DNA from: Hassallia byssoidea VB512170
GTDB taxonomy: Bacteria > Cyanobacteriota > Cyanobacteriia > Cyanobacteriales > Nostocaceae
Assembly (NCBI RefSeq): GCF_000817785.2
Contig: NZ_JTCM02000027.1
Location: forward strand, 1 to 35,362
DNA: 35,362 nt
Reading direction: 5' to 3'
Below, piece after piece: positions 13,561-35,362 of this stretch. Below the pieces are notes generated by a model. It was given only the letters and a program-made list of their open reading frames with translations. It ran no database searches and was not told the DNA's origin. A program made the position numbers and the translations under genes. Numbering within the stretch: position 1 is the first letter of the stretch; every line of letters starts with the position of its first letter.

Positions 13561-16500
13561 ATGGCTAACATAAGAGTGAGTATTCCCGGATATCAAGTCA
13601 GTGAAGAACTGTACAACGGTTCTAGAACCGTAGTTTATCGGGGATATCGAGAAACTGACTTTTTACCAGTGGTGATTAAACTGCTGAAAAATCCTTATCC
13701 CAGTTTCAGCGAACTGGTGCAGTTTCGCAATCAGTATACCATTGCCAAAAATCTCAACTCACCCCTAATCATCCAAACTTACAGCTTAGAACCCTACCAA
13801 AATGGCTATATGTTAGTGATGGAAGACTTTGGGGGGATTTCTCTAAAAGAATGGGGAGTGGGGAGTGGGGAGTGGGGAGTGGGGGGAACTCTAGAATCTC
13901 TAATGGAGTTTTTGCAGATAGCGATCGCCCTTTCTAATACTTTAGATATTCTCTACCGATCGCGCATTATTCATAAAGATATTAAACCGAGCAATATTTT
14001 AATTAATCCTCTAACCAAACAAGTTAAATTAATTGACTTTAGTATTGCATCTCTGCTGCCAAGAGAAACTCAAACCCTAATTAGTCCAAATGTGTTAGAA
14101 GGGACACTCGCTTATATTTCTCCAGAACAAACGGGAAGGATGAATCGGGGGATTGACTACCGTACTGATTTTTATTCTCTTGGTGTCACTTTGTACGAAT
14201 TATTGACGGGAGAATTACCATTTACGTCAAACGACCCGATGGAGTTGGTACATTGTCATATTGCAAAACTTCCGCCATCCCTTCGGGAAGTCAAAAGTCA
14301 AAAGTCAAAAGGAGCCAGTGTGTTGGGGAGACAGCGCCGTGGGCGGGTTTCCCGACTTGAGGCGACTGTCGTCGGCTCTGCCGACTTGAAGCAACTGGCG
14401 TTCAAAAGTGAAGAGATTCCGCAAGTGTTGTCAGATATTGTCAGAAAATTGATGGCTAAAAATGCTGAAGACCGCTATCAGAGTGCATTCGGGCTAAAAT
14501 TTGATTTAGAAACTTGTTTGTATCAACTTAAAGAAACAGGTATTATAGAGAGTTTCCCAATTGCACAACGGGATGTGTGCGATCGCTTTATTATCCCCGA
14601 CAAACTTTATGGACGAGAAACAGAAGTAGAAATTCTACTCCAAGCATTTGAAAGAGTTAGCCAGGGTGCAACACAAATGATGCTGGTAGCTGGTTTTTCG
14701 GGTATTGGTAAAACTGCGGTTGTAAACGTTGTTCATAAACCGATTGTCAAACAACGCGGTTATTTTATTAAAGGTAAGTATGACCAATTTCAACGAAATA
14801 TTCCCTTGAGTGCATTTGTGCAAGCATTCCGGGATTTAATCGGGCAATTGTTAACAGAAAACGATGCACAAATCCAGCAATGGAAAAGCAAGATTTTATC
14901 AGCTGTAGGTGAAAACGGACAGGTAATTATTGAAGTCATCCCGGAATTATCAAGAATTATTGGTATCCAACCACCTGTTCTGGAATTATCAGGAACTGCG
15001 GCAGAAAATAGATTTAATTTATTATTCCAAAAGTTTACCCAAGTCTTTACCAGCTTAGAACATCCATTAGTGATGTTTCTAGATGATTTGCAATGGGCAG
15101 ATTCGGCATCGCTGAAGTTAATGCAGTTATTAATGGCTGATACAAATCATCTTTTATTAATTGGTGCCTATCGTGATAACGAAATCAAACCAGCACATCC
15201 TTTGATGTTGACTTTGAGTGATATCCAAAAAACAGCAACCACGATTAATACGATTACTTTAGCACCACTGAGTCAAAGACAAGTAAATCAATTAGTTGCT
15301 GACACACTTAAATCGACTGAAAATTTAGCCTTGCCTCTTTCTCAACTTGTATCTCATAAAACTCAAGGTAATCCGTTTTTCGCTACACAGTTTCTCAAAG
15401 CATTACATCAAGATGGATTAATTGAATTTAACTTCTCATCAGGGTGTTGGCAATGTGATATCACGCAAATAAATCAGCGATCGCTCACAAATGATGTTGT
15501 AGAATTCATGGCATTGCAATTACAAAAGTTGCCAGAATCAACTCAAGGTGTTTTAAAATTAGCTGCGTGTATCGGGAATCAGTTTGATTTAGAAACATTA
15601 GCGATTGTTTCTAAACAATCAAAAATAGAAACGGCTGCTTGTTTGTGGAGTGCCTTACAGGACGATTTGATTTTACCCCAAAGTGAGGTTTATAAGTTTT
15701 TTGTTGGGTCAGAAAATCAAGCTGTTACTCAAGAAAATTCGGAAATTATTGGATATAAATTTCTGCACGATCGCGTCCAACAAGCAGCTTATTCCTTGAT
15801 ACCAGAAGCTCAAAAACAAAAGACACATTTGAGGATTGGTCAATTGTTATTGCAAGAATTATCCCAGCAGGAACAACAAGAACGGATTTTTGACCTAGTA
15901 AACCAACTGAATCTGGGACAAGCTGCGATCGCCATCGATGAGCAGAAAAAACAACTGGCTGGCTTAAACCTGCAAGCAGGACAAAAAGCAAAACTCTCGG
16001 CAGCTTATCAAGCATCCCAGAGCTATTATACAACTGGGATTGATTTATTACCCGCAACCGCTTGGCAGACTGACTATGAATTAATGTACAGTTTGCACCG
16101 ATATGGCTCAGAAGCAGCTTATCTGTGTGGTAATTTTGACCAAGCCGAAGTCCTTTATGGGGAAGCACTTAGCCATGCTCAAACACCCCTAGACAAAGCG
16201 GTGATTTATCGCGTGCAGATGACTCAATATCAGCTTCAGGGACGCAATGCAGAAGCGATCGCCATTCAACGTCAGAGTTTACAATTACTTGGCTGGGAAA
16301 TGCCCGCACAAGAACTGATTCAACAAAGTCTGGACGAAGAAATTGCCATAGTTAACAGATTTTTAGAACAGCAGACTGTTGAATCCATTCTCAATTTTCC
16401 CAAAATGTCAGATGCCAATATTGCAGAAATGTTGCGAATTTTACAAATTCTCTTTTATGCTGCATGGCTTGATGGTCAATCGACTTTAGCATTGCTTGCA

Positions 16501-19083
16501 CTTGCTAAAATGACTACTTTGTGTATGCAGTATGGTAACAGCGATATGTCCCCCTTTGGCTATGTCGGCTATGGCTTAATTGCCAATGCGATGCTAAAAA
16601 ACTCTGCGATCGCTTATCAGTTTGGAGAAATGGCAGTGCAGCTTTGCGAACAGTTTGATAATGCAGATGTCCGGGGAATGACTAATTTTCTCTTTGCTGC
16701 CGATGTGCATAGCTGGAGTCGTCCAATTAGAGAAGCGGATACATACTACGACAACGCCTACAAGTATGGCATGGAAGCAGGGAACTGGCTGACCGTTGGC
16801 TTTACGATGATGCAAAGTGGTTCCGATCGCCTCACCTATGGTAAAAATCTCGATGAACTATATGCGATCGCCCAAGCGAATGCAGATTTTCTCCGTAACA
16901 TCAAAAGTTTAGAGAATTTAGATGCTTTAATAGTCGGAGTTATTCAACCAATTCGCAATCTTCTTGGTTTAACAAAAACCCCCTTCAGCTTTGATGACGA
17001 GAGTTTCAGTGAAGCTGAGTATTTACAAAAATATAGCAATACCCCTTATCATCTGGCTTGGTTATATTCTGTCAAAATTCGTCATGCTTATTTATTTGAC
17101 CACAAAGCCGCATACCCAGATTTAATTCTTCAACTGAGCATAATTGAAAACACCATTTCCAGTCATGCCAAAGTCCCTTCTAGCGTGTTTTATGTAGCAT
17201 TAATGCACCTGTCTCTAGCTGAAATTGCTAGCGACGAGCAACAGCGTCAGTTCCATTGGCAAGCGCTCATTCCTTTAGAGGAACGCTTAAACAGTTGGGC
17301 ACGGACCTGTCCGGAAAATATTCTCCACAAGTGTCTGCTAATACAAGCAGAAAAAGCACGGCTAAACGGACAAAAAGCAGAGGCACTCGATTTTTACGAA
17401 CAAGCCATTGCTCAAGCTCAACGTCAAGGTTATGGCTATGAAGAAGCGATCGCTAACGAACTTGCAGCTAAATTCTACCTCGACTGGGGCAAAGAAAAAG
17501 TCGCCGCAGATTATATACATGAAGCCTACTATTGCTATACCCGCTGGGGCGCAAAAGCCAAAACCTCGGACTTAGAAAAACGCTATCCCCAACTTCTCAA
17601 ACTTATTCTAGAACAGCAACGACTTACCCTCAAACACGACGAAACTATTAGCTTTCGTGGCACTTCCTCATCTACTTGCACGAATAGCACTTGCAGCACC
17701 AGTCTTTTCGATGTTCTGGATTTTACAAGCGTACTAAAAGCCGCTCAAGCTATCTCCAGTTCTCTAGAATTAGATCAACTCATTGCCAGCCTCACCCGCA
17801 TTATCCTCGAAAACTCCGGCGCGAAAAAAGCTGTACTGCTGCTTCCCCAAGAAAATACTTGGCAAGTTAGAGCAATTACCTTGATTGAGCATGAGGAAAT
17901 ACAAACTATCCTCGAACCACAATCACTCTTCAATTGTCAAGATATTCCCGTAAAAATTATCAATTACGTCAAAAATACCCAACAAACAGTTGTGATAGAT
18001 AATTGCAAAACAGATATCCCTGGTTTAATTGGGGAATATATGCTCGAACATCAACCCCAAAGTGTGTGTTGTACTCCGATTATTAATCAAGGGCATTTAG
18101 TAGGGATTCTGTATTTAGAAAATCAACTGACTCAAGGGGTATTTACTCGCGATCGCCTCAGCGTAATTAACTTATTGTCTTCTCAAGCCGCAATATCTCT
18201 AGAAAACGCTCGACTGTATCAACAAGCGCAACAAGCATTACAAGACTTACAACAAGCCCAATTACAAATCGTCCAAAGTGAGAAAATGTCTGCACTAGGT
18301 AATTTAGTTGCTGGGGTAGCCCATGAAATGAATAATCCTTTAGGCTTTATTGCTGCCAGTCTCAAACAAGCTAAACCCAGCCTTGCGGATATTGTTGAAC
18401 ATTTGAAACTATATCAACAAAGTTTACCCAATCCAGGTGATGAAATTATCGACCATGCGGTCGAAATTGACTTGGATTATAGCTTAGAAGACTTACCCAA
18501 GATAATTGATTCAATGGTGATGGCGTGCGATCGCCTCCGCAACATTAGCACCAGTCTCCGCACTTTCTCCCGCGCTGATAAAGATTATAAAGTGCCATTT
18601 AACATCCACGAAGGTATCGACAGCACGATTTTAATTCTCAAACATCGCCTGAAAGCTAACGAACAACGTCCCGCAATTGAAGTGATAACTGAATATGGTA
18701 ATTTGCCCAAGATTGAATGTTTTCCTGGACAATTGAATCAGGTATTTATGAATATTATGGCAAATGCTATTGATGCGTTAGAGGAATCAAATACTGGGCG
18801 GACTTTTGAGGAAATTCAAGTTAATCCCAACCGAATTACAATTACAACTTCAGTGGAAAATGAAGGCGTGAAAATTAGCATTGCTGATAACGGTCAGGGG
18901 ATGACTGAATCAGTCAAACAAAAGATTTTTGACCACTTATTTACTACTAAAGCTGTCGGGAAAGGTACGGGATTGGGGCTGGCGATCGCAAAGTCTATCG
19001 TCGAAGAAACCCACGGCGGAAAATTGAGTTTTAACTCTGTTCTCGGTCAAGGTACAGAATTTTTGATTGATATTCCGGTGTAA
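13561..19083 (+). CDS. Giant hybrid Ser/Thr kinase - AAA/STAND-like ATPase - GAF - histidine kinase
   Basis: The 1840-residue protein has the cyanobacterial trifunctional architecture. Residues about 8-300 form a Ser/Thr kinase with catalytic loop HKDIKPSNIL and KLIDFS in place of DFG, both usual in this subfamily. A PknK-type ATPase with Walker A GFSGIGKT (378-385) and Walker B VMFLDDLQWAD follows. A long helical/TPR-like region runs to about 1390, then a GAF domain (about 1400-1545), a coiled coil and a histidine kinase core with phospho-His 1588 in GVAHEMNNP, N box NQVFMNIMANAIDAL, DNGQGM and GTGLGLAIAKS. No membrane helix is obvious, so it should be cytoplasmic. Two repeat insertions lie inside the kinase domain: EWGVGSGEWGVGG at residues 97-109 and about 40 residues near 241-281. 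Both keep frame. It heads a signalling cluster with the next three genes; inputs are unknown. Confidence 0.92.
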   Translation: MANIRVSIPGYQVSEELYNGSRTVVYRGYRETDFLPVVIKLLKNPYPSFSELVQFRNQYTIAKNLNSPLIIQTYSLEPYQNGYMLVMEDFGGISLKEWGVGSGEWGVGGTLESLMEFLQIAIALSNTLDILYRSRIIHKDIKPSNILINPLTKQVKLIDFSIASLLPRETQTLISPNVLEGTLAYISPEQTGRMNRGIDYRTDFYSLGVTLYELLTGELPFTSNDPMELVHCHIAKLPPSLREVKSQKSKGASVLGRQRRGRVSRLEATVVGSADLKQLAFKSEEIPQVLSDIVRKLMAKNAEDRYQSAFGLKFDLETCLYQLKETGIIESFPIAQRDVCDRFIIPDKLYGRETEVEILLQAFERVSQGATQMMLVAGFSGIGKTAVVNVVHKPIVKQRGYFIKGKYDQFQRNIPLSAFVQAFRDLIGQLLTENDAQIQQWKSKILSAVGENGQVIIEVIPELSRIIGIQPPVLELSGTAAENRFNLLFQKFTQVFTSLEHPLVMFLDDLQWADSASLKLMQLLMADTNHLLLIGAYRDNEIKPAHPLMLTLSDIQKTATTINTITLAPLSQRQVNQLVADTLKSTENLALPLSQLVSHKTQGNPFFATQFLKALHQDGLIEFNFSSGCWQCDITQINQRSLTNDVVEFMALQLQKLPESTQGVLKLAACIGNQFDLETLAIVSKQSKIETAACLWSALQDDLILPQSEVYKFFVGSENQAVTQENSEIIGYKFLHDRVQQAAYSLIPEAQKQKTHLRIGQLLLQELSQQEQQERIFDLVNQLNLGQAAIAIDEQKKQLAGLNLQAGQKAKLSAAYQASQSYYTTGIDLLPATAWQTDYELMYSLHRYGSEAAYLCGNFDQAEVLYGEALSHAQTPLDKAVIYRVQMTQYQLQGRNAEAIAIQRQSLQLLGWEMPAQELIQQSLDEEIAIVNRFLEQQTVESILNFPKMSDANIAEMLRILQILFYAAWLDGQSTLALLALAKMTTLCMQYGNSDMSPFGYVGYGLIANAMLKNSAIAYQFGEMAVQLCEQFDNADVRGMTNFLFAADVHSWSRPIREADTYYDNAYKYGMEAGNWLTVGFTMMQSGSDRLTYGKNLDELYAIAQANADFLRNIKSLENLDALIVGVIQPIRNLLGLTKTPFSFDDESFSEAEYLQKYSNTPYHLAWLYSVKIRHAYLFDHKAAYPDLILQLSIIENTISSHAKVPSSVFYVALMHLSLAEIASDEQQRQFHWQALIPLEERLNSWARTCPENILHKCLLIQAEKARLNGQKAEALDFYEQAIAQAQRQGYGYEEAIANELAAKFYLDWGKEKVAADYIHEAYYCYTRWGAKAKTSDLEKRYPQLLKLILEQQRLTLKHDETISFRGTSSSTCTNSTCSTSLFDVLDFTSVLKAAQAISSSLELDQLIASLTRIILENSGAKKAVLLLPQENTWQVRAITLIEHEEIQTILEPQSLFNCQDIPVKIINYVKNTQQTVVIDNCKTDIPGLIGEYMLEHQPQSVCCTPIINQGHLVGILYLENQLTQGVFTRDRLSVINLLSSQAAISLENARLYQQAQQALQDLQQAQLQIVQSEKMSALGNLVAGVAHEMNNPLGFIAASLKQAKPSLADIVEHLKLYQQSLPNPGDEIIDHAVEIDLDYSLEDLPKIIDSMVMACDRLRNISTSLRTFSRADKDYKVPFNIHEGIDSTILILKHRLKANEQRPAIEVITEYGNLPKIECFPGQLNQVFMNIMANAIDALEESNTGRTFEEIQVNPNRITITTSVENEGVKISIADNGQGMTESVKQKIFDHLFTTKAVGKGTGLGLAIAKSIVEETHGGKLSFNSVLGQGTEFLIDIPV
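13852..13886. repeat. Heptanucleotide array GGGGAGT inside the kinase gene
   Basis: Four to five copies of ggggagt encode a Gly/Trp/Val/Ser stretch at residues about 98-109, between the adenine-pocket hinge and the next helix of the kinase domain. This surface loop tolerates insertion. Comparable GGGAATG-type arrays occur between genes at 29220-29300. Confidence 0.8.
14288..14404. repeat. Dispersed repeat inserted in frame in the kinase gene
   Basis: It starts with gtcaaaa heptamers (14290-14310) like those at 5680-5719, then a GC-rich core beginning gagccagtg and containing cagcgccgtgggcgggtttc (14332-14351), related to the core at 11671-11700. It encodes an odd Lys/Arg/Gly segment between normal kinase subdomains X and XI. 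Confidence 0.75.
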
Positions 19084-28209: not shown

Positions 28210-28452
28210 ATGGCAACTGTATTTAATAAAGATGGCTTTAGTGTTCGTATTTACTTTAACGATCATCTTCCATCCCATGTTCATGTTTTTAAAGCTGAGG
28301 GAGAAGCCAAAATTAACCTGGGAAGTGAAACTGAGCGTCCTACATTCCTCGCAGTCTGGAACATGAGCAATAAAGATGCAACCAAAGCCCTAAACTTGGT
28401 GATCGAACATCAAGCGGAACTATTAGAAAAATGGAGAGAAATTCATGAATAA
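28210..28452 (+). CDS. DUF4160 protein, putative toxin-antitoxin component
   Basis: A complete 80-residue DUF4160 protein. The family signature is clear: FSVRIYFNDHLPSHVHVF with conserved His residues, GEAKINLGSE, then ALNLVIEHQAELLEKWREIH at the end. DUF4160 genes are very often followed directly by DUF2442 genes, as here, where the stop overlaps the next start by 8 bases (ATGAATAA), pointing to translational coupling. The pair is predicted to be a type II toxin-antitoxin-like module; which partner is toxic is not settled from sequence. Transcription would start from the palindrome-bearing promoter just upstream. Confidence 0.85.
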   Translation: MATVFNKDGFSVRIYFNDHLPSHVHVFKAEGEAKINLGSETERPTFLAVWNMSNKDATKALNLVIEHQAELLEKWREIHE

Positions 28453-28876
28453 CCTAGATTTTACGACGGAGGAAACCTTAAATAATGAAATAGCCCAGGC
28501 AAGAGCAGCCGCAGCTATGGCAGATGCCTCTGAACCACGCGCTCAAGCTGCCCATTACGATTTAGATTTGAATCGCATCGTCGTTGAACTGCGCTCAGGG
28601 GCTACTTTCTTGTTTCCCCCTGAATTGGTTCAGGGATTGGCGGGTGCATCTCCAGATAACCTTAATAATGTCGAAGTCACTCCTTCCGGCGAGGGGCTGC
28701 ACTGGGAACAGCTGGATGTTGATATGAGCATTCCAGCTTTGATGCTGGGGATATTCGGTACTAAGGCTTGGATGGCTGAATTAGGCAGCCGAGGAGGTTC
28801 CGTAAGCTCAACGGCAAAAGCTAAAGCGGCGCGTGAAAACGGCAAGCGAGGAGGACGACCGCGAAAAACATTATAA
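28445..28876 (+). CDS. DUF2442 protein with basic C-terminal tail
   Basis: A 143-residue protein. Residues about 35-115 match DUF2442 (AHYDLDLNRIVVELRSGATF; FPPELVQGLAGA; VEVTPSGEGLHWEQLDVDMS). The last ~30 residues are rich in Ala, Lys, Arg and Gly and end in NGKRGGRPRKTL, an AT-hook-like tail that suggests DNA binding and hence the antitoxin/repressor role. That tail would suit binding to the 22-bp palindrome in the operon promoter. It overlaps the DUF4160 gene by 8 bases. A shared terminator lies just after the stop. Confidence 0.83.
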   Translation: MNNLDFTTEETLNNEIAQARAAAAMADASEPRAQAAHYDLDLNRIVVELRSGATFLFPPELVQGLAGASPDNLNNVEVTPSGEGLHWEQLDVDMSIPALMLGIFGTKAWMAELGSRGGSVSSTAKAKAARENGKRGGRPRKTL

Positions 28877-30981: not shown

Positions 30982-31818
30982 ATGTCAACCCCCGATCAAC
31001 CTTTTGCCAGTTATCACCTCTGGTCTTTAATTGCCCCAGCTTCCGGGCAAGAACGCTGGCATTGCCAGATGAGACGGGGGTTTATCAAAGCGCGTCAACA
31101 CGATCCGCTAGTCAAAGCACTGTTGAAAACAGCCACCGCACCCCAGCGCATTGGGCTACTTGCCCAAAAAGGCGTTTATGAGTTTCATCACAATCGACAC
31201 TTGTTGAACTCGGAAGACGGTGTAGAAAAAGTTGCACAGCTACTGAAATTAAATTACTCAAGTGACGAAGTTCAGCAGCGCGTATTGCAAATTTTAAAGA
31301 AATATCATGAAGAACCATTACTTTCGGGTAAGCGCATCATTCAATTAACTCGCGGTGATGAAGGCTTTCCCAAACCTATTTTGATTGAACGGGAAAATTA
31401 TTCCTTCCGCTTATATGCGACGATGGACTGTGTTTTTTCTGATTCTTCTGACACTTTACATATTTTAGATTTCAAAACTGGTAAATCTGCTTTTGATACA
31501 AGACAGGCATTAGTTTATTTGTTAGCTGCTCGTTATCTTTATCCGCAATATCAAGCGGTTGCTTCATTTTATAATTTAGAGTTTAGTAAAAAATCTGAGT
31601 TAATTAGCATTACAAAAGGCGAATTAGAATCTTTAGAATTTGAGTTAGCTAGCATTGCTCAAAAACATCAGCGAGATTTACAAAGATATCAACTAACTAA
31701 TAATAGCTTTAGTAAAATTTTTCCGCCAAATCCAGGATATCACTGTCGATTTTGTCCGTTTAACTCAATCTGTGATTTTTCCTCTTTAAAGCCGGCTAAG
31801 GTGCATTTGCCACGTTGA
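30982..31818 (+). CDS. PD-(D/E)XK nuclease-family protein with Cas4/AddB-like Cys cluster
   Basis: A 278-residue protein. The nuclease core has LYATMDCVFSD, then LHILDFKTGKS (D163, K165) as the D-x-K motif, and a following helix QALVYLLAARYLYP resembling the Q/Y motif of RecB-type nucleases. One N-terminal Cys (C28) plus a C-terminal cluster C255-x2-C258-x5-C264 matches the four-Cys iron-sulfur arrangement of Cas4 and AddB. No CRISPR array or cas gene is in the window, so a stand-alone repair or nucleic-acid-processing role is more likely than adaptation. It is divergent from the phosphohexomutase gene. Its stop at 31816-31818 is directly followed by a repeat array. Confidence 0.8.
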   Translation: MSTPDQPFASYHLWSLIAPASGQERWHCQMRRGFIKARQHDPLVKALLKTATAPQRIGLLAQKGVYEFHHNRHLLNSEDGVEKVAQLLKLNYSSDEVQQRVLQILKKYHEEPLLSGKRIIQLTRGDEGFPKPILIERENYSFRLYATMDCVFSDSSDTLHILDFKTGKSAFDTRQALVYLLAARYLYPQYQAVASFYNLEFSKKSELISITKGELESLEFELASIAQKHQRDLQRYQLTNNSFSKIFPPNPGYHCRFCPFNSICDFSSLKPAKVHLPR

Positions 31819-31900: not shown

Positions 31901-31916
31901 CATTAGAAGCTGAAGC

Positions 31917-32147
31917 TTCGTGCTTGGAACTCGAAAGTTCGTGCTTGGAACTCGAAACTTCGTGCTTGGAACTCGAAACTTCGTGTTCAGAACTCGAAAG
32001 TTCGTGTTCAGAACTCGAAAGTTCGTGCTTGGAACTCGAAACTTCGTGCTTGGAACTCGAAACTTCGTGCTTGGAACTCGAAAGTTCGTGCTTGGAACTC
32101 GAAGCTTCGTGCTTGGAACTCGAAAGTTCGTGCTTGGAACTGCAACA
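31917..32147. repeat. Eleven tandem copies of a 21-bp unit
   Basis: Units of 21 bases, typically ttcgtgcttggaactcgaaa plus c or g, start at 31917, 31938 and so on every 21 bases to 32127. Two copies carry ttcaga in place of cttgga. Since 21 is a multiple of 3, several frames on both strands stay open and give false repetitive proteins. Each unit contains the small inverted pair agttc / gaact. 32148-32247 is ordinary spacer. Confidence 0.9.
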
Positions 32148-32247: not shown

Positions 32248-32625
32248 TTAAGTACTGGGATTTTGCTTCTTCTCAGGAAACTTACACTTCACCTCGATTT
32301 CAAAATTACTCTCTGCTGAACCTTCAGTGACGAAGGGGATACCACTTTTTCCGCCTATCTTTAAGCCAAACTTCAGAGTCACCTCTTCAACTTCAGCTAC
32401 AGCTAAATTTTTAAACGCACCAATGGCATATTTGGTATAAGCTCGTATTTGATGGTGAACTTCCTCAATCTTGACAAATGCCTCTTCTCGCCAGCCGTAG
32501 GATTCTTTATCGTCATCAACCTCCGGTGTGACTACTTCTGGAACAGTTGACGTCTCCTTTGACTCGAACAGAATTGTATAGATTTCCCCGTCTTCTTCAA
32601 AGACTAAACGTTCTATGTTCGACAT
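32248..32625 (-). CDS. Trypco1-type (CU044_2847 family) small protein
   Basis: A 125-residue protein with no signal peptide. The pattern is IERLVFEEDGEIYTILFE at the N-terminus, a central helix (WREEAFVKIEEVHHQIRAYT) and the closing EVEEVTLKFGLKIGGKSG...IPFVTEGSAESNFEIEVKCKF. This is typical of the CU044_2847 family, the trypsin-co-occurring domain Trypco1, which accompanies proteases and STAND NTPases in predicted biological-conflict systems. It is divergent from a caspase-STAND-WD40 gene across only 67 bp, so it is likely the partner or regulator of that protein. The biochemical role is unknown. ATG 32625 is chosen; the preceding TTG codon is less likely. Confidence 0.72.
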   Translation of the reverse strand: MSNIERLVFEEDGEIYTILFESKETSTVPEVVTPEVDDDKESYGWREEAFVKIEEVHHQIRAYTKYAIGAFKNLAVAEVEEVTLKFGLKIGGKSGIPFVTEGSAESNFEIEVKCKFPEKKQNPST

Positions 32626-32646
32626 CAAGCCCTCAGATTTTAGGTG

Positions 32647-32685
32647 TATTTAAGTTATCTTATTCTGTAACAGACAACTTAAATA
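32647..32685. promoter_or_regulatory. 10-bp inverted repeat in the divergent promoter region
   Basis: tatttaagtt (32647-32656) and aacttaaata (32676-32685) are exact complements 19 bases apart. The element occupies most of the 67-bp gap between the Trypco1-type gene and the caspase gene and could be a common operator, or overlap both -10 regions. Confidence 0.45.
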
Positions 32686-32692
32686 TGTATAG

Positions 32693-35362
32693 ATGGCTCG
32701 TTACGCGCTTGTTGTTGGCATTACAGATTACAAAAGTCCGATTAACAACCTGACAAAACCAGCTACGGATGCAGAAGCGGTAGAACAGGTACTAAAAGCG
32801 CATGGTGATTTTGAGGATATCGCTGTTCTCAAAGGGAAAGTTAGTACAACTAAGTTGGCTGAAGCTTTAAAAACACTTTTGCAACAACAAGCAGTTAAAA
32901 ACGAAGCCCTAATTTACTTTACAGGGCATGGCATCACCGTATCTGACAGCTTAGGAACACAACAAACATATCTAGCAACCTCTGACTTGACAATTGTCAC
33001 TCAAGGCAAGCAAATTATTGAACAAACAGGCGGGATTAGTCTTGGGAGTCTGAACAATTTAATTAGAGATTCCGACCTGAGTAGTCTAGTAGTGCTGTTA
33101 GATTGCTGTCATAGCGGTGAATTTTTAGAACGCAATCTCATCGAAAAAACTCTTACTGCCTTTATTTCACAGCGCGATTACTACTTTATTGCTGCTTGCA
33201 GAGGTTTTCAACAAGCCTATGCGAAAAAAAGCGCACAACACAGTATTTTTACAACTGCTTTGCTGGCAGGTTTGTCACCAGAGAACACTAACGATCGCGG
33301 ACAGGTGACAGGCGATCGCCTTTTCGATATACTTGCTACAGAACTTAAAAGCAGTGGTCAAGAACCAATCCGCATGGGTTGGGGGCGTTCGATTACTCTA
33401 GTTACCCACAAAAATCAAACACAAGCTCAAACCTTTGAGGTAAAGGAAGAATGTCCTTACCAAGGTTTAAAAGCGTTTGAAACGGAACAAAAACAGTTTT
33501 TCTTTGGGCGCAAGCAGGTTGTGAGGAACATTCTGGGGAAACTAACACAAAAGCCCTTTGTTCCGATTATTGGCGCTTCCGGGAGTGGTAAATCTTCTGT
33601 AGTTCAGGCGGGTTTGATTCCAGAATTAGATCGTAGTGTCTGGCAAATTTTACCGCCAATCAAGCCAGGATTTCACCCTTTGCAGGAATTGAGAGGAGTT
33701 CTGAAAGCATTTTTTCCAGGGGCGAAAAAAGAAAGATTGCTTTGGGAGTTGATTACTAAAGAAGCGAATCCTTTACCTGTAATTTTGGATCATCTCACAG
33801 GTGCAGACAAATTTTTATTGGTAGTAGATCAGTTTGAGGAACTATTTACTGTCTCTATTGCTGAAGAAAAGCAGAGATTTATTGAATTGCTGACTCAGGT
33901 AGTAGAGATGACCGATTCGCGGTTGGCAGTTATAATTACCATGCGATCGGATTTTCTCGAACCATGTTCAGATTATCCGTCTTTAAATAAATTAATTGAA
34001 AATCAGCTTGTTTTGATGCCGCGTATCACTGGAGTTGATTTAAAAGAGACAATAACCGAACCTGCTAAACTTCAAGGTCATAGTGTTGAAGAAACATTAG
34101 TACTGAAAATTTTAGAAGATGTTGGTAAAGAACCGGGATACTTGCCGTTGATGGAGTTTGCTTTAACTAGACTCTGGGAAAAACGCGATCGACAAAAGCA
34201 TCAACTCACCTTAGAACAGTATGAAAACTTCCAAGGATTGACAGGGGCGCTGAATTTTCATGCAGAAAATGTTTATTTTTATGAAGATTATCAGCAAGAT
34301 TCCCCGACTCATGAACGAAATGAACAACACAAGGACTGGATTAAGCAAATTTTCCTGCGATTAGTGCGAACGGGAGAGGGAGAAAAGGACACGCGACAGC
34401 GCCAACCAAAAGCTGAACTGTTAGCCATTGCTGGTAATGAGCAAGAAAAGCAGGAAGCATTAAGTGAATTGCTAGATGAAGGATTGGTGAAAGGACGTTT
34501 GCTGGTTGCTGGCAAAGATGAACAAGGAAAAGCGTGGATTGATTTAGCCCATGAAGCCTTAATTGAGGGTTGGGAGCGGTTTGCCCAATGGCGACAACAA
34601 GACCGAGATTTGCGGCGGTTACATGATAAATTAGCCGATGCTTTGCGAGAATGGTTGCACAAGGAAGAAGATGAAAAATACCTCATGCCAAGAGGATTGT
34701 TAGCAGAGGTGCAGAACAATTGGGAAAAGTTAAAGCCTGATTTATCATCTCAAGCCCAGAAATTTTATCACCGCAGCCTTGCTTATGAAGAAGAACGGAG
34801 TGTTGAACGGCAAGTTGCTCTCAGAGTCAGCATTGAAGACTTTTTGCAAAAGAAAACAGCAACTATCAAGAAAATACTCCCTGTCCAACCCCTTACAGCT
34901 TCGGTTATGGCAATACAAGCAATAGGTGAGAATCTGGAGAAAATGCCAGAGCAAATTTTCACCCCAGTTCAGAATAGCCTGCAACAAGCGATGGAGGTCT
35001 TAACTCCTTTCCGTGGTCATGAGGGTGGGGTCTGGTCTGTCGCCATTAGCCCGGATGGGCAGACGATTGTCAGTGGGGGTGAAGACGGCACAGTGCGGTT
35101 GTGGAATTTCCAAGGTCAGCTTTTGGCTGAACCCTTCGGTGGTCATCAGGGTAGGGTCTGGTCTGTCGCCATTAGCCCGGATGGGCAGACGATTGTCAGT
35201 GGCAGTAGTGACGGCACAGTGCGGTTGTGGAATTTCCAAGGTCTGCCCTTGGCTGAACCCTTCGGTGGTCATCAGGGTAGGGTCAGGTCTGTCGCCATTA
35301 GCCCGGATGGGCAGACGATTGTCAGTGGGGGTGGTGACGGCACAGTGCGGTTGTGGAATTTC
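32693..35362 (+). CDS. Caspase-like peptidase - STAND NTPase - WD40 repeat protein (3' end outside window)
   Basis: An open frame of 890 codons runs to the window edge without a stop. Residues 1-240 are a peptidase C14 / metacaspase p20-like domain, with catalytic His79 in YFTGHG and Cys139 in LLDCCHSGEF, so it should be active. A STAND-type NTPase follows from about 265 (CPYQGLKAFETEQKQFFFGR), with Walker A GASGSGKSS (294-302, Lys300) and Walker B LLVVDQFEELF (Asp379), then winged-helix-like and helical parts. From about 775 three WD40 repeats of 42 residues begin (GHEGGVWSVAISPDGQTIVS, ending DGTVRLWNF). The layout is that of a signal-gated protease: WD40 senses, STAND oligomerises, caspase cuts. 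Such proteins occur in filamentous cyanobacteria and are linked to programmed death or defence. Start ATG 32693 gives the usual MARYALVVGI. It is divergent from the Trypco1-type gene. Confidence 0.93.
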   Translation, partial: MARYALVVGITDYKSPINNLTKPATDAEAVEQVLKAHGDFEDIAVLKGKVSTTKLAEALKTLLQQQAVKNEALIYFTGHGITVSDSLGTQQTYLATSDLTIVTQGKQIIEQTGGISLGSLNNLIRDSDLSSLVVLLDCCHSGEFLERNLIEKTLTAFISQRDYYFIAACRGFQQAYAKKSAQHSIFTTALLAGLSPENTNDRGQVTGDRLFDILATELKSSGQEPIRMGWGRSITLVTHKNQTQAQTFEVKEECPYQGLKAFETEQKQFFFGRKQVVRNILGKLTQKPFVPIIGASGSGKSSVVQAGLIPELDRSVWQILPPIKPGFHPLQELRGVLKAFFPGAKKERLLWELITKEANPLPVILDHLTGADKFLLVVDQFEELFTVSIAEEKQRFIELLTQVVEMTDSRLAVIITMRSDFLEPCSDYPSLNKLIENQLVLMPRITGVDLKETITEPAKLQGHSVEETLVLKILEDVGKEPGYLPLMEFALTRLWEKRDRQKHQLTLEQYENFQGLTGALNFHAENVYFYEDYQQDSPTHERNEQHKDWIKQIFLRLVRTGEGEKDTRQRQPKAELLAIAGNEQEKQEALSELLDEGLVKGRLLVAGKDEQGKAWIDLAHEALIEGWERFAQWRQQDRDLRRLHDKLADALREWLHKEEDEKYLMPRGLLAEVQNNWEKLKPDLSSQAQKFYHRSLAYEEERSVERQVALRVSIEDFLQKKTATIKKILPVQPLTASVMAIQAIGENLEKMPEQIFTPVQNSLQQAMEVLTPFRGHEGGVWSVAISPDGQTIVSGGEDGTVRLWNFQGQLLAEPFGGHQGRVWSVAISPDGQTIVSGSSDGTVRLWNFQGLPLAEPFGGHQGRVRSVAISPDGQTIVSGGGDGTVRLWNF
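35015..35362 (+). repeat. Near-identical 126-bp WD40 coding repeats
   Basis: Copies start at 35015, 35141 and 35267, with 126-bp spacing. They are nearly identical base for base (for example gtcgccattagcccggatgg in all three). The third is cut by the window end. Conservation at DNA level, not only in protein, points to recent duplication or gene conversion. Confidence 0.92.

What the first reader, a model, noticed from the sequence alone, without database searches (positions are those of the whole stretch)
32248..35362. Divergent Trypco1-type gene and caspase-STAND-WD40 gene: likely conflict or programmed-death module
The large protein joins an intact caspase dyad (His79, Cys139), an intact NTPase (Lys300, Asp379) and WD40 sensors. 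The small neighbour is of the CU044_2847/Trypco1 type, a domain named for co-occurring with proteases and STAND proteins in predicted conflict systems. A gap of only 67 bp suggests joint control. If the small protein gates or is cut by the caspase, this would be a two-gene protease switch. I know of no experimental description of this exact pair.
Basis: partly seen in the sequence, partly recalled or inferred. Interest (0 to 1): 0.75.

Follow-up and report, generated by a model that had tools for sequence, protein, structure and literature searches.

The report
Caspase sensor with divergent partner gene
A cyanobacterium carries a protein-cutting, death-type sensor gene back-to-back with a small partner gene, and this back-to-back pair recurs in many related cyanobacteria, which suggests that the small protein is a dedicated helper or gate of the cutting enzyme.

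Summary
Confirmed. The small gene is Trypco1 (PF19493 68.6 bits; NF041216 80.9 bits); the large one is caspase-nSTAND1-WD40 with His79, Cys139, Lys300, Asp379 and a 67-bp gap. It runs past the window end across 71 N.

The linkage is not chance: in 195 genomes of the order, 48 of 81 caspase rows have a listed Trypco1 within 2 kb, all 48 head-to-head; in a hold-out, 16 of 19 loci have a caspase neighbour, all 16 divergent.

New here: Trypco1 sorts by protease. Of 147 loci, 56 face a caspase divergently and 67 precede a trypsin-like gene in the same direction; these two sets need one change on the Trypco1 tree. C-terminal modules vary while the protease stays, so the protease domain is the likely partner. 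Trp (65 of 66, trypsin) against Cys (48 of 56, caspase; Trp never) marks a candidate contact.

Function is inferred: a conflict or programmed-death sensor protease with Trypco1 as gate or adaptor. Cleavage of Trypco1 is open. Caspases without Trypco1 are common, so it is not obligatory.

The parts
32248..32625 (-). Trypco1 / CU044_2847 family gene, 125 aa (P0001)
32626..32692 (.). 67-bp divergent intergenic region
   Evidence: aligned with relatives; no conserved operator-like repeat
32693..35362 (+). caspase-nSTAND1-WD40 gene, first 890 codons; continues past the window end across 71 N
32699..33286 (+). Peptidase_C14 caspase domain (aa 3-198)
   Evidence: a profile of 30 related caspase domains matches metacaspases and MALT1
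32927..32929 (+). catalytic His79 codon
   Evidence: His in 55 of 55 Trypco1-linked and 25 of 25 other caspases examined
33107..33109 (+). catalytic Cys139 codon
   Evidence: Cys in 55 of 55 and 25 of 25
33455..34675 (+). nSTAND1 NTPase (aa 255-661), Walker A Lys300, Walker B Asp379
35000..35362 (+). WD40 blades, 126-bp DNA period, near-identical copies

Best explanation
This is a two-gene sensor-protease module of the prokaryotic conflict / regulated-death kind. The large protein is an NLR-like receptor with its own effector: WD40 blades sense, nSTAND1 is the NTP-dependent switch that oligomerises, and a caspase that prefers basic residues is the cutting end. Trypco1 is a dedicated partner of the PROTEASE domain rather than of the STAND or WD40 parts; it most likely binds the caspase through its conserved loop and last strand and gates or positions it until the receptor is triggered. 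Shown here by sequence: identity of both families, catalytic residues, conserved divergent pairing, Trypco1 lineages that follow the protease class, a variable chassis. Inferred: physical binding, gating, Arg/Lys specificity (from metacaspase and MALT1 homology), oligomerisation, trigger and outcome.
For: Linkage: 48 of 81 caspase rows linked, 48 of 48 divergent; hold-out 16 of 19, 16 of 16 divergent. Counted without regard to orientation, 57 of 58 caspase-profile ORFs within 2 kb of a Trypco1 are divergent and 72 of 74 trypsin-profile ORFs are downstream in the same direction. Of 147 Trypco1 loci 56 are caspase-divergent, 67 trypsin co-directional; the tree needs 1 change between these two labels. 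Trypco1 and caspase clades agree in 54 of 55 pairs, distance r 0.86. The caspase is constant while its chassis changes: nSTAND1+WD40 29, nSTAND1 16, neither 11; of the 11, six were scanned: iSTAND 3, AAA-TPR 1, pentapeptide 1, one without a clear second domain. Trypsin partners carry nSTAND1 in 11 of 67. P0001 position 114: Trp in 65 of 66 trypsin-linked, 0 of 56 caspase-linked. Dyad kept in 55 of 55. Pairs on conjugative plasmids. Arg/Lys at P1 for caspase homologues: passage of PMC7475262.
Against: Caspase genes without a listed Trypco1 neighbour are common: 33 of 81 rows; 21 of the 33 were fetched and none has more than a weak 56-aa Trypco1 fragment. A close relative, L035, keeps an intact caspase gene without Trypco1, though part of the gap is gone too. 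Trypco1 ORFs of normal length without a caspase exist (L153, L131, L222). One locus, L080, has a second, distant caspase ORF downstream of Trypco1 in the same direction. With the 'other' loci counted, the caspase label needs 5 changes and the trypsin label 8 on the tree. The Trp/Cys switch fits one event on the tree, so it is one comparison. Congruent trees are expected of any linked pair. Trypco1 could not be modelled well (pLDDT 53). No experiment.
Confidence: 0.6

Rival explanations
1. Trypco1 is a substrate or pro-effector: the activated caspase cuts its acidic linker after a basic residue, and the freed part acts or a bound effector is released.
For: Caspase-linked Trypco1 has a longer linker (mean 27.7 and 39.2 residues in the two clades against 21.4 in the trypsin-linked set), low-confidence in the model (residues 19-51). 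[KRYM]G in the linker: 26 of 32 and 22 of 22 against 6 of 66 trypsin-linked (shuffled means 7.6, 6.6, 15.9); hold-out 9 of 14 (shuffled mean 2.5, none of 2000 as high). Proteolytic activation of a partner by a bacterial caspase is known (PMC12799240, passages).
Against: Motif picked by eye after seeing the sequences. The strict form [KR]G is in 22 of 22 of clade B but only 11 of 32 of clade A, within the shuffles (mean 6.2, max 13), and the window protein is in clade A with Tyr-Gly. 5 of 14 hold-out loci lack [KRYM]G. Pfam shows only Trypco1 in the small protein, no known effector domain.
Confidence: 0.2
2. The pair serves endogenous regulated proteolysis (stress, differentiation) rather than defence.
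For: Cyanobacterial orthocaspases are discussed for stress and programmed death (PMC7475262, passages). Of the 10 other window proteins given to Pfam (not every flanking gene) none bears the name of a known defence system; they were not scanned with PADLOC.
Against: Patchy presence (90 of 195 genomes have Trypco1); copies on conjugative plasmids; near-identical blades that suggest sensor remodelling (inference); parts shared with predicted conflict systems (PMC7159879, passages).
Confidence: 0.12
3. Trypco1 is a divergently transcribed transcriptional regulator of the caspase gene.
For: Head-to-head arrangement with short gaps (median 86 bp over 56 loci); a 10-bp inverted repeat in the window gap, longer than in any of 60 shuffles.
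Against: The inverted repeat is not kept in close relatives, and over 44 gaps the mean best arm is 6.1 against 5.8 in shuffles; Trypco1 is acidic (pI 4.7) and Pfam finds no DNA-binding domain; trypsin-linked Trypco1 is co-directional with its protease gene.
Confidence: 0.06
4. Neutral neighbourhood: the genes are adjacent by history only.
For: Trees of linked genes agree by default; either gene can occur alone.
Against: Adjacency and orientation recur in loci from 20 coded families of the order, in two genomes outside it (by coordinates) and in 5 plasmid records, while the gene on the other side of Trypco1 varies in length and strand.
Confidence: 0.02

Closest known systems
Trypco1-trypsin pairs of VMAP ternary systems (Kaur et al. 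2020, PMC7159879, passages)
   Same: Same small domain beside a peptidase; 11 of 67 trypsin partners seen here carry the same nSTAND1
   Different: Partner here is a caspase and the order is divergent instead of co-directional; the paper pairs VMAP caspases with an alpha/beta-hydrolase and calls the two pairings mutually exclusive in those systems
EACC1-caspase two-gene system (PMC7159879; NCBIfam NF047832)
   Same: Constant small gene beside a constant caspase with variable C-terminal modules, sometimes nSTAND1 (PMC8195603, passage)
   Different: Small gene is Trypco1, not the membrane domain EACC1; caspase domain scores 97.7, below the 140 cut-off of NF047832; divergent, while the paper describes a 5' and a 3' gene
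Canu caspase-nuclease system (PMC12799240, passages)
   Same: Bacterial caspase with a dedicated partner (CanB forms a soluble complex with CanA)
   Different: Receptor parts are fused to the caspase; a partner nuclease was not looked for systematically (a PD-(D/E)XK gene lies nearby in the window, but the gene at that place differs in length in relatives)
Cyanobacterial orthocaspases with NACHT or AAA_16 and WD40 (PMC7475262, passages)
   Same: Caspase p20, NTPase and WD40 parts, HC dyad
   Different: No Trypco1 partner in the passages shown
DGR-linked conflict loci with Trypco1 (PMC10907252, passages)
   Different: No divergent two-gene caspase pair in the passages shown

Membership tests
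Trypco1 / CU044_2847 | Profile score over curated cut-off | tested here: met
   68.6 against 24.6 bits; 80.9 against 23 bits
Trypco1-trypsin pair | Trypsin-like neighbour gene | tested here: not met
   Neighbour is a caspase; no trypsin-profile ORF within 6 kb of the window Trypco1
Orthocaspase / Peptidase_C14 | p20-like domain with His-Cys dyad | tested here: met
   PF00656 52.7 bits against 21.4; His79, Cys139
Orthocaspase / Peptidase_C14 | Cleavage after Arg/Lys | not testable with these tools
   D26 and D137 align with Asp of metacaspases and MALT1; their role in the pocket is recalled
STAND receptor | nSTAND1 NTPase with Walker A/B followed by a repeat sensor | tested here: met
   PF20703 357.5 bits, K300, D379, WD40 blades
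EACC1-caspase system | EACC1-type caspase over cut-off and EACC1 neighbour | tested here: not met
   NF047832 97.7, below 140; the divergent neighbour is Trypco1
VMAP ternary system | vWA, MoxR and VMAP genes together | tested here: inconclusive
   None named among 12 window proteins given to Pfam, but for the large protein only 25 of 51 families were shown, and the other window genes and the downstream contig were not scanned
Anti-phage defence system | Demonstrated protection | not testable with these tools
   PADLOC: partial matches of the large protein only (caspase 66 bits over aa 1-174; two weaker), none for Trypco1 at E 1

The most novel reading that the evidence does not exclude
Trypco1 is a general gate for two unrelated protease folds: one small protein family that holds either the trypsin-like or the caspase protease of NLR-like receptors inactive, with partner choice set by few residues (Trp versus Cys at position 114, Phe71) and release by cutting its linker after a basic residue that both protease classes could recognise.
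Probability: 0.25. Interest if true: 0.85.

Novelty: new variant of a known kind. Interest (0 to 1): 0.6.

Why it matters
Bacterial relatives of the apoptosome are predicted in large numbers, yet how their proteases are kept silent is mostly unknown (general knowledge). A partner that sits head-to-head with a caspase or directly upstream of a trypsin-like gene, and that follows the protease rather than the receptor body, points to the missing control step and gives one small, testable protein with named candidate residues.

Tried and rejected
Shared operator in the gap: a perfect 10-bp inverted repeat in the window did not hold across 44 gaps. Sigma-70 scan: one site, inside the Trypco1 gene (0.4 expected), no support. 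Trypco1 against solved structures by sequence: nothing better than E 0.65 (single sequence) or 0.19 (profile). Structure: low-confidence model (pLDDT 53.4, pTM 0.36; 9 sequences), strand-strand-linker-helix-strand-strand; the Foldseek search gave 0 matches at E 0.001 and is not used. Phage records: no match at E 0.001. Strict toxin-antitoxin reading: disfavoured, because caspases and Trypco1 each occur alone. Literature searches on the name: Trypco1 in 2 papers, 'trypsin-co-occurring domain' in 1, CU044_2847 in 0; further searches. Papers were seen as passages or listings; no whole text and no supplement was read.

Limits and rows left out: the row lists were truncated by the tool. 8 of the 150 Trypco1 places used were not fetched. 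5 of 152 loci had no Trypco1 ORF of 60 aa or more; 4 of the 147 are shorter than 95 aa. The class 'caspase-divergent' is divergent by definition; the orientation-blind counts are those. share most of their loci. The trypsin profile was built from the neighbours themselves; Pfam checked 63 of the 67 kind by gene position, not all 67. The hold-out was drawn by similarity to P0001, so it tests P0001-like Trypco1 only; L205 was removed because it has the contig length and the Trypco1 sequence of L037; L216 and L217 are near-copies; L218 and L223 have broken Trypco1 frames and are not in the residue and motif counts; the caspase of L223 is an 83-aa fragment and that of L211 is split by a stop. 12 of 33 unlinked caspase rows were not inspected. 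The [KRYM]G motif was chosen post hoc, then tested on the hold-out.
Full report
WHAT IS THERE. The window is bases 1-35362 of contig C147 (75,046 bp) of a 7.5-Mb genome. Among ten named relatives of its large gene, those most alike are from Spirirestis and Nostoc (91% in the best segment), so it is probably a filamentous cyanobacterium (inference). On the minus strand, 32248-32625 encodes a 125-aa acidic protein (pI 4.7) that matches Pfam Trypco1 and NCBIfam CU044_2847 well over the curated cut-offs. After 67 bp, 32693 onward on the plus strand encodes caspase (aa 3-198), nSTAND1 (aa 255-661) and WD40 blades. The window stops at a run of 71 N inside the blades; the frame is open on the other side to a stop.

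THE PAIR IS REAL. Ten relatives of the large protein were found in named genomes. Eight of ten have the Trypco1 gene head-to-head. The two misses are L035, with an intact 1442-aa caspase gene but a repeat array where Trypco1 and part of the gap should be, and L043, where the caspase gene itself looks rearranged (caspase ORF and WD40 ORF without nSTAND1). In 195 genomes of the order, PF19493 hits 90, and the caspase domain at E 1e-20 gives 81 rows in 57 genomes. Of these rows 48 (47 loci) have a listed Trypco1 within 2 kb on either side, and 48 of 48 are divergent. Of the 33 unlinked rows I fetched 21 (20 stretches); none has an intact Trypco1 there, and one (L185) has a weak 56-aa fragment 1.5 kb upstream.

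HOLD-OUT. Predictions were written before fetching: every fourth of the 81 listed P0001 hits from genomes outside the first sample. Of 20 loci one is a duplicate of L037. Of 19, 16 have a caspase-profile neighbour and 16 of 16 are divergent; L214 and L222 have none, and L217 only an nSTAND frame. No trypsin-profile ORF was found in these loci. All 18 Trypco1 proteins printed, the duplicate included, have Cys at the diagnostic column, 17 of 18 the Pro. The linker motif held in 9 of 14. Because the draw was by similarity to P0001, it tests P0001-like Trypco1 only.

TWO PROTEASES, TWO GENE ORDERS. I used 142 of the 150 Trypco1 places taken, plus the ten named relatives: 152 loci, of which 147 hold a Trypco1 ORF of 60 aa or more. 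Of 147: 56 have a caspase as first gene on the 5' side, divergent (median gap 86 bp); 67 have a trypsin-profile gene next downstream in the same direction (median gap 4 bp, up to 346); 1 has a convergent trypsin; 23 are other. Counted without regard to orientation, 57 of 58 caspase-profile ORFs within 2 kb are divergent; the exception is a second, distant caspase ORF downstream of Trypco1 in L080, which also has a divergent one. Of 74 trypsin-profile ORFs 72 are co-directional downstream, 1 upstream, 1 convergent. My trypsin profile was built from the neighbours; Pfam finds Trypsin_2 in 40 of 42 neighbours of a first set and in 18 of 31 of a second, which includes 10 genes upstream of Trypco1. 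Three of the 23 others (L123, L125, L132) have a CHAT-AAA_35 gene and a WD40 gene upstream in the same direction; CHAT is a caspase-fold protease family (recalled). The 56 caspase loci come from 20 coded families of the order, 7 named Nostocaceae and one without a family.

WHO FOLLOWS WHOM. On a quick tree of 143 Trypco1 proteins (123 columns, SH-aLRT only) the caspase and trypsin labels need one change when the 21 other loci are left out; with them the caspase label needs 5 changes and the trypsin label 8, against shuffled means of 44.5 and 47.5. Trypco1 and caspase clades agree in 54 of 55 pairs, with L058 the exception; distances correlate at r 0.86 (0 of 2000 shuffles), within the two clades at 0.77 and 0.74. 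Since linked genes co-inherit, this shows a travelling unit, not contact. More telling is what varies. Of 56 caspase partners 29 have nSTAND1 and WD40, 16 nSTAND1 without detected WD40, 11 neither. Six of the 11 were scanned with Pfam: three have iSTAND, one AAA and TPR (NB-ARC below its cut-off), one pentapeptide repeats, one (L167) only a marginal peptidase C13 match. Of 67 trypsin partners 11 have nSTAND1. The protease is the constant, so I infer that Trypco1 acts on the protease.

CANDIDATE CONTACTS. At P0001 position 114 trypsin-linked proteins have Trp in 65 of 66; caspase-linked ones have Cys in 48 of 56 and never Trp. Pro97 is in 55 of 56 against 5 of 66. Six proteins that branch beside the caspase group, five of them trypsin-linked, share Pro97 and Tyr63 but keep Trp. 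This fits one change at the base of the caspase group, so it is one event. The loop around residues 91-107 is highly conserved in nine close proteins and low-confidence (93-103) in the model.

LINKER. The stretch between strand 2 and the helix is longer in the caspase-linked clades. [KRYM]G occurs in 26 of 32 and 22 of 22 against 6 of 66 trypsin-linked; hold-out 9 of 14, shuffled mean 2.5, maximum 7 in 2000 shuffles. The strict basic form [KR]G is in 22 of 22 of one clade but only 11 of 32 of the clade that holds the window protein, within its shuffles. The window protein has Tyr-Gly. A cut site is therefore a hypothesis only.

CATALYSIS. The dyad is kept in 55 of 55 linked caspases and in the 25 others examined (24 without a Trypco1 neighbour and the second L080 ORF). 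A profile of 30 caspase domains matches metacaspases (E 1.2e-7) and MALT1 (E 1.2e-6) in the PDB; the window domain alone matches none at E 1. A review says that such caspase homologues are specific for Arg or Lys at P1 (PMC7475262, passage); that Asp26 and Asp137 shape the pocket is recalled from metacaspase work.

NOT OBLIGATORY. 24 caspases without a neighbouring Trypco1, and the L080 ORF, are spread over the caspase tree (10 changes, shuffled mean 21). Trypco1 ORFs of normal length without a caspase beside them exist (L153, L131, L222). In L168 a broken Trypco1 lies beside an nSTAND remnant. This speaks against an essential antitoxin.

MOBILITY AND RANGE. Five plasmid records, all cyanobacterial and three of them Acaryochloris, match P0001. 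H1, H3 and H5 have a divergent caspase-nSTAND1 gene by profile. For H2 and H4 I rely on annotation: a 'caspase family protein' head-to-head with a CU044_2847 gene in each; on H2 the best-matching Trypco1 copy faces a gene annotated as pentapeptide repeat protein that I did not scan. A second copy at the edge of H4's stretch was not examined. Three of the five records are typed conjugative. In 244 genomes of the phylum, 8 outside the order have the family; two, G407 and G518, show divergent pairs by coordinates, while G395 and G533 have both families apart. No phage record matched.

HOW IT LIKELY WORKS. Blades bind a trigger, nSTAND1 exchanges nucleotide and oligomerises, caspase domains come together and cut. 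Trypco1 sits on the caspase until then, or delivers it. Blades are near-identical within a protein (mean DNA identity 0.91 over 15 blades of L035), so the sensor may be under remodelling. Steps after domain identity are inference.

WHAT IS KNOWN. Trypco1 was named for trypsin neighbours in VMAP systems, with caspases there paired to alpha/beta-hydrolases (PMC7159879, passages). [quoted passage not shown] EACC1-caspase systems follow the same logic with another small protein. In the Canu system CanB forms a soluble complex with the caspase CanA (PMC12799240, passages). In the passages shown of the two papers that mention Trypco1 I saw no divergent Trypco1-caspase pair; papers outside the open library, the rest of these texts and their supplements were not read.

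Noticed in passing
window 31912-32141 and L003:10916-11191: A 21-bp tandem array lies beside Trypco1, and a similar array, judged by its reading frames only, follows the caspase gene; in L035 such an array stands where Trypco1 and part of the gap should be, so repeats may drive loss of the small gene.
   Followed up: partly
G000:C37:2446-2712 (L004): Second Trypco1 in the same genome, a 99-aa form beside a SWIM zinc-finger gene and what looks like an SNF2-type helicase (by eye only); no protease-profile neighbour.
   Followed up: partly
L123, L125, L132: CHAT-AAA_35 gene, WD40 gene and Trypco1 in one direction: receptor and protease on separate genes, Trypco1 of the caspase-type branch with Cys at position 114.
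   Followed up: partly
L080:865-2520: A second, distant caspase ORF overlaps the end of Trypco1 and runs in its direction, so this Trypco1 lies between two caspase genes.
   Followed up: no
L035:5001-9329: 15 WD40 blades, some identical at DNA level: ongoing blade amplification.
   Followed up: no
L058: Only pair of 55 whose Trypco1 and caspase clades disagree; possible partner exchange.
   Followed up: no
L228 (pMB04, Acaryochloris): Two Trypco1 genes, each head-to-head with a large gene, near each other on one plasmid with an IS transposase between them.
   Followed up: no
L077, L151, L184: Caspase-iSTAND genes divergent from Trypco1; an AAA gene follows in L077 and a vWA CoxE-like gene lies further on in L151: apparently iSTAND ternary systems with Trypco1.
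   Followed up: partly
window 30982-31818: PD-(D/E)XK nuclease gene on the other side of the small gene; the gene at this place differs in length in relatives.
   Followed up: partly
window 28210-28876 and L003:11315-12651: Small gene pairs on both sides (DUF4160 and DUF2442; PIN-like and RelE/Phd-like by eye): possible toxin-antitoxin modules.
   Followed up: no
window 13561-19083: 1840-aa Ser/Thr kinase-AAA_16-GAF-histidine kinase protein.
   Followed up: no
control genomes: Methanosarcina acetivorans, an archaeon, is the only one of 14 control genomes with a match.
   Followed up: no
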